A program made the position numbers and the translations under genes. Below are positions 141 to 5,958 of a stretch of 64,000 nucleotides of DNA, in pieces. The DNA comes from Parapedobacter pyrenivorans (lineage in GTDB: Bacteria > Bacteroidota > Bacteroidia > Sphingobacteriales > Sphingobacteriaceae): the NCBI RefSeq assembly GCF_014636865.1, contig NZ_BMER01000001.1, positions 2,220,718-2,284,717 of the forward strand, in the 5' to 3' direction. The notes beneath the pieces were generated by a model. It was given only the letters and a program-made list of their open reading frames with translations, was not told the DNA's origin and made no database searches. Numbering within the stretch: position 1 is the first letter of the stretch; every line of letters begins with the position of its first letter.

Positions 141-2264
141 ATGGAAAAATATGTCATCAAACGAAGCGGGGCCTATGAGTCGTTCAAGCCTTACAAGATA
201 AGCGATGCCATAAAAAAGGCATTCGAAAGTGTATCCCAGCAGCCGGAGGGAGCGGTGTACAACGCCGTGATGGAGTTGCTGGCACATCAAGATACGTGGG
301 CCGTGGAGGAAATACAGGATTATATCGAGAAAGTGCTCCACCATCGGCAGCACTTTGAAGTGATGCGTTCCTTCATGCTGTATCGGCATACGCGGAAACT
401 CCAGCGCGAACACCTGTATGGGTTAAGTGAAGCCACGACGTATATCGATAGCTCGCAAACCATTGAAGAGTATATCGGCAGGACCGATTGGCGCATCAAT
501 GCTAACGCGAACGTTTCTTACTCCAGTGCCGGGCTCGTGAACAATACCGCGGGAAAAGTAATAGCCAATTATTGGTTAGACAAGGTGTATAGCAAGGAGG
601 AGGGGTATGCACATCGGAATGGCGATATCCATATCCACGATTTGGATTGCCTGACGGGCTATTGTGCCGGATGGAGCCTGCGCGTATTGCTCAATGAGGG
701 TTTCAACGGCGTACGCGGACGGGTAGAAAGCCGGCCGCCATCCCATTTTCGCGCGGCATTGGGGCAGCTAGCTAATTTCCTAGGCATCTTACAGAGTGAA
801 TGGGCCGGGGCACAGGCATTTAGTTCGTTTGATACGTACTTGGCGCCCTACGTGTTTAAGGATCAATTACCCTTTCGCGAGGTATTGAAGGCCATCCGCA
901 GTTTCGTATATAATGTCAATGTGCCGGCGCGCTGGGGCCAGTCGCCATTCACGAATATTACGCTGGATTGGAATGTGCCGGAGGATCTGAAGGAACAGGT
1001 ACCGACAAAAGGGGATGCCCACCTCTTCACGGGTTTGAAGGACGAGGAATTGATCCAACTTGCCCAACAGCGCGGCGTGACTGCGTTGGAAGACCTATGC
1101 TATAAACATTTTCAGCCGGAAATGGACATGATAAACAAGGCGTATTATATCGTCATGACAGAAGGCGACGCCAACGGGCAACCGTTTACGTTTCCCATTC
1201 CAACAGTCAACATTACCGAAGATTTCGACTGGGAGAGTGAAAATGCGCTGTTGCTCTTTGAGAATACGGCCAAAATCGGGTCTTCTTATTTCCAGAACTT
1301 CGTCGGAAGCCAGTATTTGCTGGACGCGTCGGGCAACCGAGTGGAAAATCCCGAGGCGTATAAGCCCAACGCAGTACGAAGCATGTGCTGTCGGTTGCAG
1401 CTCGATTTGCGGGAATTGTTGAAGCGGGGAAACGGATTGTTCGGCAGTGCTGAAATGACTGGAAGCATCGGCGTTGTGACGATCAATATGGCGCGTCTGG
1501 GCTACCTGTACAAAGGCGATGAGACCGGATTGTACCGGCGATTGGACCATTGGTTGGCTATCGCGAAATCGACGTTGGAGAAGAAGCGGAAATTTGTCCA
1601 GGATTTGTATGATCGTGGCTTGTATCCCTATACCAAGCGTTATTTGTCGCATTTCCGTAACCATTTCTCCACGATCGGTGTCAATGGTACGAATGAAATG
1701 ATCCGGAATTTTTCAGCGGATCGCGCCGATATTGTCTCCGAAGGCGGAATCACTTTCGCCACTGCCATCCTCGAACATATCCGCATGCGCATGCGGGAAT
1801 TCCAGGAAGATACGGGCAATCTGTATAACCTGGAGGCCACGCCAGCCGAAGGCACAACATACCGTTTTGCCAAGGAAGACAAGAAGCGCTTTCGGGAGAT
1901 CCTGCAAGCGGGGCAAGGCGAGAACATTTACTATACCAATAGTTCGCAGTTGCCCGTAGACTATACCGAAGACCCGTTTGAAGCCCTGCTTTTGCAGGAC
2001 GATTTGCAATGCAAGTACACCGGAGGCACGGTGTTGCACTTGTATATGAGTGAGCGCATCAGCTCGCCGGAAGCCTGTCGGAATTTCGTGCGTACAGTAA
2101 TCAATAACTTCAAACTGCCTTATATCACCGTTACGCCGGTATTCAGTATTTGTCCTAAACACGGGTATCTCGATGGCGAGCATACGTATTGCCCGAAATG
2201 CGATGACTTGATTTTAACAACTTATCAAAATTTAGTATGTGATGAATATACAACAGCAACATGA
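141..2264 (+). CDS. nrdD: Anaerobic (class III) ribonucleoside-triphosphate reductase, large part without the glycyl-radical loop
   Basis: Class III ribonucleotide reductase making deoxyribonucleotides without oxygen. The product is 707 residues. An ATP-cone covers about residues 1-95, beginning MEKYVIKRSG, which is why the ATG at 141 is preferred to one at 105. The catalytic barrel follows, with a cysteine pair at 416-417 (SMCCRLQLD). A zinc-type element with C671 (CPKH), C684 and C687 (CPKC) sits near the end. The frame then stops after about 20 unconserved residues, before the glycyl-radical loop that normally completes NrdD. That loop (RVMGYHRP) is present in the +1 frame from 2242. The activase gene follows. 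What is seen is a split or frameshifted gene. Whether this is natural or a sequence error cannot be settled here. Confidence 0.93.
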   Translation: MEKYVIKRSGAYESFKPYKISDAIKKAFESVSQQPEGAVYNAVMELLAHQDTWAVEEIQDYIEKVLHHRQHFEVMRSFMLYRHTRKLQREHLYGLSEATTYIDSSQTIEEYIGRTDWRINANANVSYSSAGLVNNTAGKVIANYWLDKVYSKEEGYAHRNGDIHIHDLDCLTGYCAGWSLRVLLNEGFNGVRGRVESRPPSHFRAALGQLANFLGILQSEWAGAQAFSSFDTYLAPYVFKDQLPFREVLKAIRSFVYNVNVPARWGQSPFTNITLDWNVPEDLKEQVPTKGDAHLFTGLKDEELIQLAQQRGVTALEDLCYKHFQPEMDMINKAYYIVMTEGDANGQPFTFPIPTVNITEDFDWESENALLLFENTAKIGSSYFQNFVGSQYLLDASGNRVENPEAYKPNAVRSMCCRLQLDLRELLKRGNGLFGSAEMTGSIGVVTINMARLGYLYKGDETGLYRRLDHWLAIAKSTLEKKRKFVQDLYDRGLYPYTKRYLSHFRNHFSTIGVNGTNEMIRNFSADRADIVSEGGITFATAILEHIRMRMREFQEDTGNLYNLEATPAEGTTYRFAKEDKKRFREILQAGQGENIYYTNSSQLPVDYTEDPFEALLLQDDLQCKYTGGTVLHLYMSERISSPEACRNFVRTVINNFKLPYITVTPVFSICPKHGYLDGEHTYCPKCDDLILTTYQNLVCDEYTTAT

Positions 2265-2424
2265 CCTGATATTGCAGCAATATCAGGAAAAACGTAACAA
2301 ATGTTTGGTTTACACCCGGGTGATGGGCTACCACCGCCCCGTAGAGAGTTTCAATGTCGGAAAGAAAGGGGAGCATCGGCAACGCACGCATTTTACCGAA
2401 AGAAGTGCCAACGCCCATCTATAG
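2242..2424 (+). CDS. Glycyl-radical C-terminal domain of anaerobic ribonucleotide reductase, encoded as a separate 60-residue ORF
   Basis: This small frame encodes the missing end of NrdD. It contains KCLVYTRVMGYHRPVESFN followed by GKKGEH, the conserved finger loop of class III reductases; G29 is the expected radical glycine. It has its own ATG at 2242 and overlaps the end of the large NrdD frame by 23 bases, an arrangement compatible with translational coupling. An in-frame TAG at 2233-2235 means the frame cannot be extended upstream as it stands. Its end overlaps nrdG. Alternatives are a real single-gene frameshift mutation, a programmed +1 frameshift between 2236 and 2261, or a sequencing indel. 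The domain identity is firm; its existence as a free polypeptide is inference. Confidence 0.75.
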   Translation: MNIQQQHDLILQQYQEKRNKCLVYTRVMGYHRPVESFNVGKKGEHRQRTHFTERSANAHL

Positions 2425-3082
2425 CATTACCCCGTTTACATTATTGGATTACCCAGGCAAAACAGCCTGCATTCTTTGGTTTGCAGGCTGTAATATGCGT
2501 TGTACATATTGTTACAATCCGGATATCGTGTTGGGTAAAGGCGTTGTGTCCATAATGGAGGCACTAACGTTTCTCCGGTCGCGCAAAGGATTATTGCAGG
2601 GTATAGTGTTGAGTGGGGGGGAATGTACCTTGCATCCCACGGTTTTCCCGTTGCTTGAAACGGCCAAGGAATATGGTTTTGACGTGAAGATAGACACAAA
2701 CGGTTCGCGGCCAAAGGTGCTGGAAAGGCTGATTGCCCGCCGACTTGTCGATTACATCGCCCTTGATTTCAAGGCGCTGGAACATCGCTATCAGGCAATT
2801 ACCGAATCGACGCTATTTCCCGAATTCGCCGAGAGCCTGTCGTTGCTCAATTGCTCCAGCGTGCCGTTTGAGCTACGTACCACGGTACACAGTGAATTGA
2901 TTACACGCGATGACCTGCGGGCGATGGTCGGCTTCCTACAGCAGCATGCATATAGCGGCCCATATTATATACAGCATTATGTAAACGGCGTGCCTGTGCT
3001 TGGCAAGTTATGTCGGTCCATAAAATATGCGCATTTTTCGGAGCTATCGGTCGATGGCATAGCGGTGGTGGAGCGCGGCTAA
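2354..3082 (+). CDS. nrdG: Anaerobic ribonucleotide reductase activating protein (radical SAM)
   Basis: Radical-SAM activase that would install the glycyl radical on NrdD, using S-adenosylmethionine and a 4Fe-4S cluster. The cluster motif CxxxCxxC is visible as CNMRCTYC (C46, C50, C53) within LWFAGCNMRCTYCYNPD, and a SAM-binding SGGECTLHP segment follows. The sequence type resembles the NrdG2 subgroup rather than the short E. coli NrdG. The ATG at 2354 gives 242 residues and overlaps the radical-domain ORF by 71 bases. A GTG at 2405 (residue 18) would give 225 residues and a 20-base overlap, and conserved sequence begins only after it, so the start is uncertain. Tight overlap with the two upstream frames indicates one operon. 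Confidence 0.9.
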   Translation: MSERKGSIGNARILPKEVPTPIYSITPFTLLDYPGKTACILWFAGCNMRCTYCYNPDIVLGKGVVSIMEALTFLRSRKGLLQGIVLSGGECTLHPTVFPLLETAKEYGFDVKIDTNGSRPKVLERLIARRLVDYIALDFKALEHRYQAITESTLFPEFAESLSLLNCSSVPFELRTTVHSELITRDDLRAMVGFLQQHAYSGPYYIQHYVNGVPVLGKLCRSIKYAHFSELSVDGIAVVERG

Positions 3083-3141: not shown

Positions 3142-5958
3142 TTACTTGCTCAGGTACATTGACTTCTTTGCAACCATTTCCCTGAAAAACGGGTCGTCCA
3201 AATCCTTGATGAAACGAATGGCCTCCCCAGTGGATTTCATCTCGGGACCGAGCTGTTTATCAACATCCGGGAATTTATCGAACGAAAATATCGGCTCTTT
3301 AATAGCATAGCCTTTCAGTTTACGCGCGATGGTAAAGTCTTTCAGCTTATTGGTACCGAGCATGACCTTGGTGGCGATATTTACGTAGGGGACATCATAG
3401 GCCTTGGCAATGAAGGGAACGGTCCGGGAAGCCCTTGGATTGGCCTCGATGACGTATACCTTTTCATCCTTTATGGCAAACTGGATGTTGAGTAGACCAC
3501 GTACGTTAAGTGCCTTGGCAAGCTTGATGGTATATTCCGCCATTTTTTCCTGCACATTTTCAGACAGACTGAATGGTGGGAGCACGGCACTTGAGTCGCC
3601 GGAATGGATTCCCGCAGGTTCGATATGCTCCATCATTCCAATGATGTGCACATCGTCACCGTCACTGATAGAATCAGATTCGGCCTCTTCGGCGCGGTCG
3701 AGGAAATGATCGATGAGCACGCGGTTACCCGGCAGGTTGCGCAGCAGTTTCACAACCGCCGTCTCGAGTTCTTCGTCATTGATAACGATGCTCATGCGTT
3801 CGCCGCCAAGTACATAGCTTGGCCGTACGAGCACAGGATAACCTACATTCTTGGCCACCTCGAGCGCTTCTTCGGCACTTTCCGCTACGCCGTATTTTGG
3901 GTAGGGGATATCCAGTGATTTAAGCAGGTCGGAGAAACGGCCGCGGTCTTCCGCTAGATCCATATCCTGGAAGGACGTACCGATAATCCGGATACCGTTG
4001 GATTCGAGCTGCTCAGCCATCTTCAATGCGGTCTGTCCACCCAGTTGAACGATTACCCCCACCGGTTTTTCCAGTTCGATGATTTCACGTACGTGCTCCC
4101 AATAGACCGGCTCGAAATAGAGCTTGTCGGCCATGTTGAAATCGGTGGATACCGTTTCAGGATTGCAATTGACCATGATGGACTCGTAGCCGGCTTCTTT
4201 AGCAGCTAACAGGCCATGTACACAGGAATAGTCGAATTCGATGCCTTGGCCAATCCGGTTGGGACCCGATCCGAGTACAATGATTTTCTTCCTATCGGAT
4301 GCGATCGATTCGTTTTCTTCTTCAAAAGTCGAGTAGTAGTAGGGTGTTTGCGCTGGAAACTCGGCAGCGCAGGTATCTACCATCTTGTATACCCTTCGGA
4401 TACCCAGCTCCTTGCGTCGGTTATAAACCTCATCTTCGGTTACATTGCCGAGCAGCCACGCTATTTGTTCATCGGAGTACCCCTTTTGTTTCAATGTAAT
4501 GAAGAAATCCTTGGGGATGTTGTTCAGTTGATAACGCCGTAATTCAGTTTCTAAGGTTACCAACTCCTGGATTTGCTGTAAGAACCATTTATCGATGTGG
4601 GTTGCTTTGCGAATAGATTCCAGTGGGACGCCAAGCTCAAACGCATCCTTGATGTGGAAGAGGCGATCACTGCTCGGGTGTTCGAGGCTATACATGATTT
4701 CCTCCAGATTGCGTAATTGTTTGCCGTCGGCGCCGAGGCCATGGCGACCGATTTCTAAGCTCTGGCAGGCCTTCTGCAATGCTTCGATGAAGGTACGGCC
4801 GATGGCCATCACTTCGCCGACCGACTTCATCTGTAGCCCGAGTTCGCGGTTGGCACCCTTGAACTTTGCAAAATTCCAACGGGGCACTTTCACAATCACA
4901 TAATCGAGCGTGGGCTCAAAATAGGCCGACGTGGTTTTCGTAATCTGATTTTCGATTTCATCCAAGTTGTAGCCGATCGCGAGCTTCGATGCAATCTTGG
5001 CGATAGGGTACCCGGTTGCTTTGGAAGCCAATGCAGATGAGCGTGACACCCGTGGGTTGATTTCGATGGCGATAATATCTTCATTTTCCGGGTTGACGGA
5101 AAACTGTACGTTGCATCCACCGGCGAAATTACCGATAGCGCGCATCATTTTAATGGCTTGGTTGCGCATCTCCTGGTAGCAGCGGTCGCTCAAGGTCATA
5201 CCGGGTGCTACGGTAATGGAGTCGCCAGTATGGATACCCATCGGATCAAAGTTTTCGATGGTACAGATGATGATGACATTGTCATTACCATCACGCAGCA
5301 ACTCCAACTCGAATTCTTTCCAGCCTAATACCGCTTGTTCTACCAACACTTCGTGGGTAGGCGATGCCTGCAACCCGCGACTGAGCGCGGCTTCGAAATC
5401 TTCTTTTTTATGCACAAAGCCGCCGCCGGTACCACCCAGGGTGTACGATGGGCGGATCACCAATGGAAATCCGATATTCTGGGCCGCCTCTTTGCCCTCA
5501 AGGAATGAGTTCGCTATTTTTGAAGGAGCTACGCCGACACCGATATCGACCATCAATTGACGGAATGCTTCCCGGTTTTCGGTTTTTTCAATGGCGGCCA
5601 CATCCACACCGATAACCTGGACATTGTATTTTTCCCAAATTCCCCGTTCGGATGCCTCAATGCACAAGTTAAGTGCGGTCTGCCCACCCATGGTGGGAAG
5701 TACAGCATCTATTTGCTGTTCCTGTAGGATTTGTTCAATACTTTCGCAAGTCAAAGGCAGTAAGTACACATGGTCGGCAATCACCTTGTCGGTCATGATG
5801 GTCGCCGGATTGGAGTTGATGATGGATACTTCGATCCCTTCCTCCTTGAGCGAGAGGGCAGCCTGTGACCCCGAATAGTCAAATTCACAGGCCTGTCCGA
5901 TGACGATGGGACCTGAACCGATAATTAAAACCGAATTGATGGAAGTGTTTCTGGGCAT
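3142..5958 (-). CDS. carB: Carbamoyl-phosphate synthase large subunit, short form without the C-terminal allosteric domain
   Basis: Makes carbamoyl phosphate from bicarbonate, ATP and ammonia for pyrimidine and arginine synthesis, working with a CarA subunit not seen in this window. Two homologous ATP-grasp halves are visible, starting near [14 protein letters not shown] and [14 protein letters not shown], each with the family signature EFDYS. The ATG at 5958 (MPRNTSINS) gives 938 residues. A longer frame reaching 6066 is rejected because it would run into the likely promoter at 6064-6071. E. coli CarB has about 1073 residues; here the protein ends soon after [11 protein letters not shown], so the MGS-like domain that binds UMP and ornithine is absent. 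About 940 residues is, as far as I know, usual in Bacteroidota. Confidence 0.95.

What the first reader, a model, noticed from the sequence alone, without database searches (positions are those of the whole stretch)
2190..2424. Glycyl-radical domain of anaerobic ribonucleotide reductase encoded as a separate overlapping 60-residue ORF
The large nrdD frame stops at 2264, shortly after the zinc-type CPKC element and before the radical loop. The loop (RVMGYHRPVESFN and GKKGEH) is intact in the +1 frame, which has its own ATG at 2242 overlapping the large frame by 23 bases. A free radical-bearing polypeptide that docks on the barrel would parallel YfiD/GrcA, which repairs pyruvate formate-lyase. 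A mutation, programmed +1 shift or sequencing indel are the competing explanations; the full conservation of the small frame argues against old decay.
Basis: partly seen in the sequence, partly recalled or inferred. Interest (0 to 1): 0.75.

Follow-up and report, generated by a model that had tools for sequence, protein, structure and literature searches.

The report
Anaerobic RNR with separate radical subunit
In this bacterium and many of its relatives, the oxygen-free enzyme that makes DNA building blocks seems to carry its essential radical on a separate tiny protein instead of at the end of one long chain, and virus-like DNA often carries the gene for the tiny protein alone, which suggests a swappable radical part.

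Summary
The class III ribonucleotide reductase (NrdD) frame at 141-2264 ends just after its zinc element; the radical-glycine segment is a separate 60-codon gene, 2242-2424, overlapping it by 23 nt. It is not a frameshift, sequencing error or decay. I found the same split in 101 distinct loci: small-ORF starts in all three relative frames, 66 overlapping nrdD, 35 separated, one by a whole unrelated frame. It also occurs in Campylobacterota and Proteobacteria plasmids (e.g. Cupriavidus necator H16), where NCBI mostly names the small ORF 'nrdD'. Both ORFs are under purifying selection. One close relative has a fused gene nested among split ones, probably a re-fusion. The large chain's predicted fold matches solved class III enzymes up to just before their radical glycine. 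Best explanation: an obligate two-chain NrdD whose small subunit carries the glycyl radical and docks in trans. Docking, activity and repair are inferred, not shown. All 30 split genomes tested have an oxygen-respiration oxidase (confounded by descent). In 47 of 50 virus or plasmid records searched the small gene occurs without an NrdD core, a candidate 'spare part'. Ten searches of the held library found no paper describing either arrangement; the 1999 C. necator paper is not held.

The parts
141..2264 (+). nrdD large ORF (707 aa from ATG 141; 719 aa from ATG 105): ATP-cone, barrel, zinc element, ending before the radical loop
   Evidence: AF2 model of the unmodified chain matches class III RNR structures
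1386..1391 (+). two adjacent cysteines of the SMCCR motif, kept in the large chain
   Evidence: sequence; both invariant in the 29 aligned large chains. The related SCCR motif of T. maritima NrdD is discussed in PMC4493059 (passages)
2151..2201 (+). zinc-type element CPKHGYLDGEHTYCPKC at the end of the large chain
   Evidence: sequence; its three cysteines and first histidine invariant in the 29 aligned large chains
2202..2261 (+). extra C-terminal tail of the large chain after CxxC (median 17 residues in 99 of 101 relatives; the natural fusion L136 has 3 residues between CxxC and the KC of the loop); possible docking helix
   Evidence: helix 685-706 in the AF2 model, low confidence
2242..2424 (+). 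small ORF (60 aa): separate radical subunit, N-terminal extension of 19 residues + KCLVYTRVMGYHRP radical loop + GKKGEH tail
2326..2328 (+). codon of the radical glycine (RVM-G-YHRP)
   Evidence: sequence; place by alignment to NRDD/NF006126 profiles; that this glycine of the motif bears the radical is recalled
2242..2264 (+). 23-nt overlap of small ORF start and large ORF stop; likely translational coupling
   Evidence: overlap in 66 of 101 unique split loci
2354..3082 (+). nrdG radical-SAM activase (TIGR02495 NrdG2), overlapping the small ORF by 71 nt

Best explanation
This is an obligate two-chain class III ribonucleotide reductase. The large chain carries the ATP-cone, the catalytic barrel with its cysteines and the zinc element. 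The 60-residue small chain carries the radical glycine loop and the C-terminal tail. Likely cycle: both are made from one mRNA by coupled translation; the small chain docks with its loop inside the barrel; NrdG (next gene) makes the glycyl radical on the loop; the loop passes the radical to the active-site cysteine. If oxygen cleaves the small chain at the glycine, only a 60-residue subunit must be replaced instead of a 700-residue one. Shown here: two genes, their conservation, selection, spread and the likely fold of the large chain. Inferred: coupling, docking, activation in trans, repair by exchange.
For: Complementary halves of one family profile. Same split in L002-L006 and in 101 unique loci, start frames 68/18/15, 66 overlaps and 35 gaps. 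A 463-codon unrelated frame between the parts in L061; 199 nt between stop and ATG in L004. Purifying selection on both. Natural fusion L136 nested in split rows: 99/95 with L137, two further starred nodes, and AU p 0.034 against the split Bacteroidota being a clade without it (similar with one more row). It lacks both the large tail and the small N-extension, as expected if these replace the covalent link. The AF2 model of the large chain aligns to T. maritima NrdD up to residue 616-617 in 5 of 6 rows, to P. copri up to 674-676 in 6 of 7 rows (707 in the other), to T4 up to 567-576 in 5 of 5; their radical glycines are 621, 711 (papers) and 580 (recalled). Each of the 30 split genomes tested showed one match only in these searches, and the window's genome has one NrdD and no PF01228 enzyme. 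In C. necator H16 the plasmid NrdD is split, and NrdDG is told to be essential for full denitrification there (passage of PMC2864759). 30 of 30 split genomes tested have COX1 and class I NrdB; of 21 fused ones other than G063, 4 have COX1 above cut-off and 2 NrdB.
Against: No expression, binding or activity data. The oxygen association is confounded by descent (the split Bacteroidota are one group) and I tested 30 of 46 split genomes. The re-fused G063 has the same oxidase and NrdB, and fused Acidiphilium and Actinomyces genes lie inside the proteobacterial split clade, so both forms are viable and the benefit is unproven. AU p 0.034 is modest and the clade was named after seeing a tree.
Confidence: 0.86

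Rival explanations
1. Programmed +1 frameshift that yields one fused chain.
For: In the window and 68 of 101 unique loci the small frame is +1 relative to the large one. A stable hairpin lies just after the stop (z -3.0 for the region), and in the window it exceeds synonymous shuffles (z -2.8).
Against: 33 of 101 loci have another frame or the same frame behind a stop; 35 have a gap, one with an inserted frame. Over 96 loci the hairpin signal is absent: mean z -0.34, 8 below -2 against synonymous shuffles.
Confidence: 0.04
2. Sequencing indel or recent mutation that broke an intact nrdD.
For: A break near the end of a gene is the usual look of an indel.
Against: Independent assemblies of many species share it; selection on the small frame; annotated as a separate ORF in complete plasmids.
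Confidence: 0.01
3. The small chain is a YfiD-like spare part, and the large chain is not its main partner or is inactive.
For: Size and content resemble a stand-alone glycyl radical cofactor; orphan copies exist in virus and plasmid records.
Against: No other NrdD or PF01228 glycyl radical enzyme found in the genome; the small ORF does not match PF01228 at E 1e-3; the large chain keeps its cysteines and zinc element and is under strong selection.
Confidence: 0.06
4. The two chains are joined after translation, by protein ligation or trans-splicing.
For: Would explain two genes for one enzyme.
Against: No intein or other splicing family among the matches of either ORF in Pfam (E <= 1e-3) or NCBIfam (E <= 1).
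Confidence: 0.02

Closest known systems
Fused class III RNR, NrdD (T4, T. maritima, P. copri; NF006126/PRK08270)
   Same: Same domains in the same order, same cysteines, zinc element and radical loop; NrdG next door.
   Different: The radical loop and C-tail are a separate gene; the large chain has an added tail and the small chain an added N-terminal extension.
YfiD/GrcA and T4 Y06I spare-part proteins for pyruvate formate-lyase (PMC8683613, passages read)
   Same: Stand-alone polypeptide with the radical glycine, expected to dock on a barrel lacking it.
   Different: Other family (no PF01228 match); here it is the only radical chain of the operon, not a replacement. The virus and plasmid orphans are closer to Y06I.
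Split class II RNR NrdJa/NrdJb (PMC9669993 and PMC4860495, passages read)
   Same: An RNR divided into two chains.
   Different: Another class, another cut point, no glycyl radical.
Phage split RNR genes: introns, inteins, Aeh1 nrdA-a/nrdA-b, phiAS4 nrdD fragments (PMC3653736, passages read)
   Same: RNR genes in pieces; Aeh1 is told to have a functional nrdA from two genes.
   Different: Those breaks are tied to introns, inteins or homing endonucleases or are sporadic; this one lies at one place and recurs across three phyla.

Membership tests
Class III ribonucleotide reductase NrdD | NRDD catalytic domain and ATP-cone | tested here: met
   PF13597 E 5.8e-161, PF03477 E 6.6e-17, NF006126 1075 bits against a cut-off of 548
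Class III ribonucleotide reductase NrdD | C-terminal radical glycine loop in the same polypeptide | tested here: not met
   loop lies in the separate ORF 2242-2424; so 'NrdD' holds for the pair, not for either chain alone
Class III ribonucleotide reductase NrdD | fold of the catalytic chain | tested here: met
Class III ribonucleotide reductase NrdD | dedicated radical-SAM activase NrdG beside it | tested here: met
   TIGR02495 186 bits, cut-off 131
Class III ribonucleotide reductase NrdD | glycyl radical and NTP reduction | not testable with these tools
   needs protein work
Autonomous glycyl radical cofactor (YfiD/GrcA) | PF01228 Gly_radical domain | tested here: not met
   small ORF matches only NRDD at E <= 1e-3 in Pfam; no PF01228 match in the genome at E <= 1e-3
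Autonomous glycyl radical cofactor (YfiD/GrcA) | an intact radical enzyme of the same kind elsewhere, for which it is a spare | tested here: not met
   one NF006126 match in the genome, ending at profile 649 of 684; one A1 match
Programmed frameshift gene | fixed relative frame and overlap across relatives | tested here: not met
   offsets 68/18/15 and 35 gaps among 101 loci

The most novel reading that the evidence does not exclude
The NrdD radical loop is a free-standing, exchangeable subunit family. In aerobic and denitrifying bacteria it is the regular second subunit of NrdD, replaced when oxygen cleaves it; phages and plasmids carry the same subunit alone to re-arm the host's NrdD during infection, the NrdD counterpart of T4 Y06I for pyruvate formate-lyase.
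Probability: 0.45. Interest if true: 0.88.

Novelty: new variant of a known kind. Interest (0 to 1): 0.75.

Why it matters
In the glycyl radical enzymes described in the passages I saw, the radical glycine and the catalytic barrel belong to one chain; PMC8683613 says that YfiD and Y06I are the only validated separate radical parts and asks whether other enzymes have them. A natural two-chain NrdD would answer that from genomes and gives a direct test: the radical could be made, cleaved and replaced on a 60-residue piece that can be labelled, mutated and titrated on its own. It also explains why annotations list two RNR genes before nrdG in such bacteria, and it warns that a 700-aa NrdD without a radical glycine need not be truncated or dead.

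Tried and rejected
Junction hairpin (2265-2287): strong in the window (z -2.8), but not in the set: mean z -0.34 over 96 loci, 8 below -2. Programmed frameshift, indel, decay: see rivals. Small ORF profile against PDB sequences: no match at E <= 1. INPHARED phages with the window's small ORF: no match at 1e-5; with the L195 orphan, 2 records at 0.01. MAFFT placed the small chains wrongly when mixed with large ones (A3), so these rows were dropped. Conservation of the loop core is partly circular for the same reason, and so is the motif of the 53 virus loci, which were found by it. Tail lengths were read from the last 30 residues, so longer tails are not counted (L032 and L085). My script called 6 plasmid loci 'FUSED' (L225, L229, L230, L231, L233, L234) because GC-rich DNA leaves the small frame open for over 200 codons; their large chains end at a stop, and 5 of the 6 are annotated as two ORFs (L233 has no annotation). 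In Thiothrix (L235) the large chain itself is in two pieces. The first AU test also held Sulfuricurvum out of the clade; I repeated it without that row. For the tree I used 60 of the 129 or more NrdD rows then held. Literature: 10 searches, search listings, and passages of 12 papers; no paper was read whole. Siedow et al. 1999 on the C. necator enzyme is not held, so an earlier remark on the small ORF there, or in RNRdb, cannot be excluded. Pseudomonas aeruginosa NrdD: length recalled as 675 aa, not tested.

Full report
WHAT IS THERE. The large frame runs to the TGA at 2262-2264 and the radical segment is in the +1 frame, ATG 2242 to stop 2424. Pfam and NCBIfam models of NrdD are divided between the two ORFs almost without loss. 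NrdG follows at 2354-3082 and overlaps the small ORF.

IT IS A SEPARATE GENE, NOT A BROKEN ONE. Of 41 genomes in the first search 6 have this NrdD (window included), and all 6 are split. In P. indicus 199 nt lie between the large stop and the small ATG. With a profile of the small ORF (A1), 34 of 399 family genomes match: 33 have a short separate frame (58-99 codons), 1 a fused one (G063, 738). In a phylum sample 21 of 395 match: 10 with short frames (56-92), 11 with fused ones (714-805) at much weaker scores. With the large chain in a class sample 30 of 395 match: 11 at 73% identity or more, all split when read; of the other 19 (39% or less) 10 are other, fused NrdD forms and 9 match only in the N-terminal, ATP-cone part. 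The genome-contig scan gave 587 confirmed loci, of which the best 80 were kept: 79 are split with the large chain upstream, and the last (L097, at a contig end) has a short frame and no large chain on the piece held. Over the 140 loci then held and the window, 128 are split, 12 fused (L125-L136), 1 is L097. The 128 are 101 distinct ones: relative frame 1/2/0 in 68/18/15, overlap in 66, gap in 35. In L061 (Flavobacteriaceae bacterium UBA7684) the 1412 nt between them hold an open frame of 463 codons, by eye a secreted protein. No fixed frame, overlap or signal is shared, so recoding cannot be the general mechanism.

BOTH PARTS ARE KEPT BY SELECTION. Among five Parapedobacter species dN/dS is 0.02-0.06 in codons 9-37 of the small ORF (outside the overlaps; 7 of 10 pairs), 0.06-0.14 over the whole small ORF, and 0.02-0.04 in the large ORF (6 of 10 pairs); the other pairs are saturated.

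HOW FAR IT SPREADS. Complete plasmids give 124 records with a relative of the large chain; of these I read 14 regions. The small ORF is separate in 11: Sulfuricurvum kujiense (70% identity to the window's large chain), C. necator H16, Sulfuricystis, Shinella, Azospira, Bradyrhizobium, Cereibacter, C. metallidurans, Paracoccus, Thiothrix and Aquabacterium. It is fused in Acidiphilium, Actinomyces and Geoalkalibacter. The small ORF is named 'nrdD' in 8 of the 11; it is 'hypothetical protein' in Paracoccus and has no listed gene in Cereibacter and C. metallidurans. So the ORF is visible in annotation. The C. metallidurans paper lists nrdD and nrdG as Rmet_5137 and Rmet_5139, skipping the number between them, without comment in the passages I saw.

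HISTORY. A 60-row tree of the chain without its radical part (quick method; 46 split, 11 fused, 3 outgroup) puts the fused forms of other classes of the phylum and Geoalkalibacter in one clade. The split forms lie together but for one viral row (L210, long branch, place unsure). Fused Acidiphilium and Actinomyces lie unresolved inside the proteobacterial split clade, and fused G063 inside the split Sphingobacteriaceae. The fewest changes between split and fused, outgroup left out, are 3. A careful 27-row tree and a 26-row one without Sulfuricurvum both give G063 + split L137 99/95 and two further starred nodes around them. Holding the 21 split Bacteroidota together without G063 costs 8.0 log units, AU p 0.034 (18.3 and 0.031 when Sulfuricurvum was also held out). 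I read G063 as a re-fusion. It has three residues between CxxC and the KC of the loop, while split relatives have a tail of 11-26 residues on the large chain (99 of 101; the other two are longer) and 15-45 residues before the loop on the small one. This is what one expects if the two added stretches take the place of the peptide bond.

OXYGEN. I took 30 of the 46 genomes seen to be split and 22 fused ones. All 30 have heme-copper oxidase (PF00115) above cut-off and class I NrdB (PF00268); so has the re-fused G063; of the other 21 fused genomes 4 and 2 have them. This fits a repairable radical part in cells that meet oxygen, but descent confounds it. Denitrification genes lie beside split nrdD in C. 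necator (nitric oxide reductase), Shinella (nosL) and Sulfuricurvum (NnrS, napA). A short PF00115 frame, by length likely norB, lies within 10 kb in 5 of the 30 genomes (G480, G679, G972, G980, G1097; my reading of the coordinates).

ORPHANS. A scan of IMG/VR with A1 gave 53 loci, all with the loop in a frame of 48-166 codons. Of 50 whole records searched with PF13597 (48 of these virus records and two Allochromatium plasmids), 2 hold an NrdD core (G1128, G1155), 47 hold only the last segment of the profile (from 482 or 508 in three, 527 or later in the rest; G1127 has a further 15-bit match to 503-529), and 1 gave no match at 0.001. The records run from 4 to 183 kb and may be fragments or contain host DNA. 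In most of the 8 virus pieces whose ORFs I listed and in the Allochromatium vinosum plasmid the neighbours look phage-like to me (virus genes judged by eye, no family scan). One archaeal virus, ANMV-1, carries a 144-aa protein with such an end. PHROG 4132 (unknown function) is the best match of the 5 small ORFs tested. These look like spare radical parts for the host's enzyme.

WHAT IS NEW. Split RNRs of class I and II, intron-broken phage nrdD genes and the PFL spare parts are known (passages). In the ten searches of the held library I found no account of an NrdD with its radical loop as a regular separate subunit, nor of orphan NrdD loops in phages. Most subscription papers are not held, among them Siedow et al. 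1999.

Noticed in passing
L169-L221 (IMG/VR), L237, L238 (Allochromatium plasmids): Stand-alone NrdD radical-loop genes without any NrdD core in 47 of 50 whole records searched; candidates for phage- and plasmid-borne spare radical parts.
   Followed up: partly
L214, L215, L216, L217, L219: In the small ORFs of these virus contigs a TGA stands where relatives have the glycine of NxGKK, as if UGA were read as glycine (the code recalled for Gracilibacteria/SR1).
   Followed up: partly
L136 (G063, same family), 728-738 aa frame: A fused NrdD nested in split relatives, with only EDT between CxxC and KCLVYT: likely natural re-fusion.
   Followed up: yes
L061:2597-4009: An unrelated, by eye secreted, 463-codon frame between nrdD and its radical subunit gene.
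   Followed up: partly
L239 (ANMV-1 archaeal virus), 4680-5114: 144-aa protein annotated as anaerobic RNR with only the radical loop at its end; N-terminal part unidentified.
   Followed up: no
window 2354-2424: nrdG overlaps the small ORF by 71 nt in another frame, so a 60-codon gene is overlapped at both ends.
   Followed up: no
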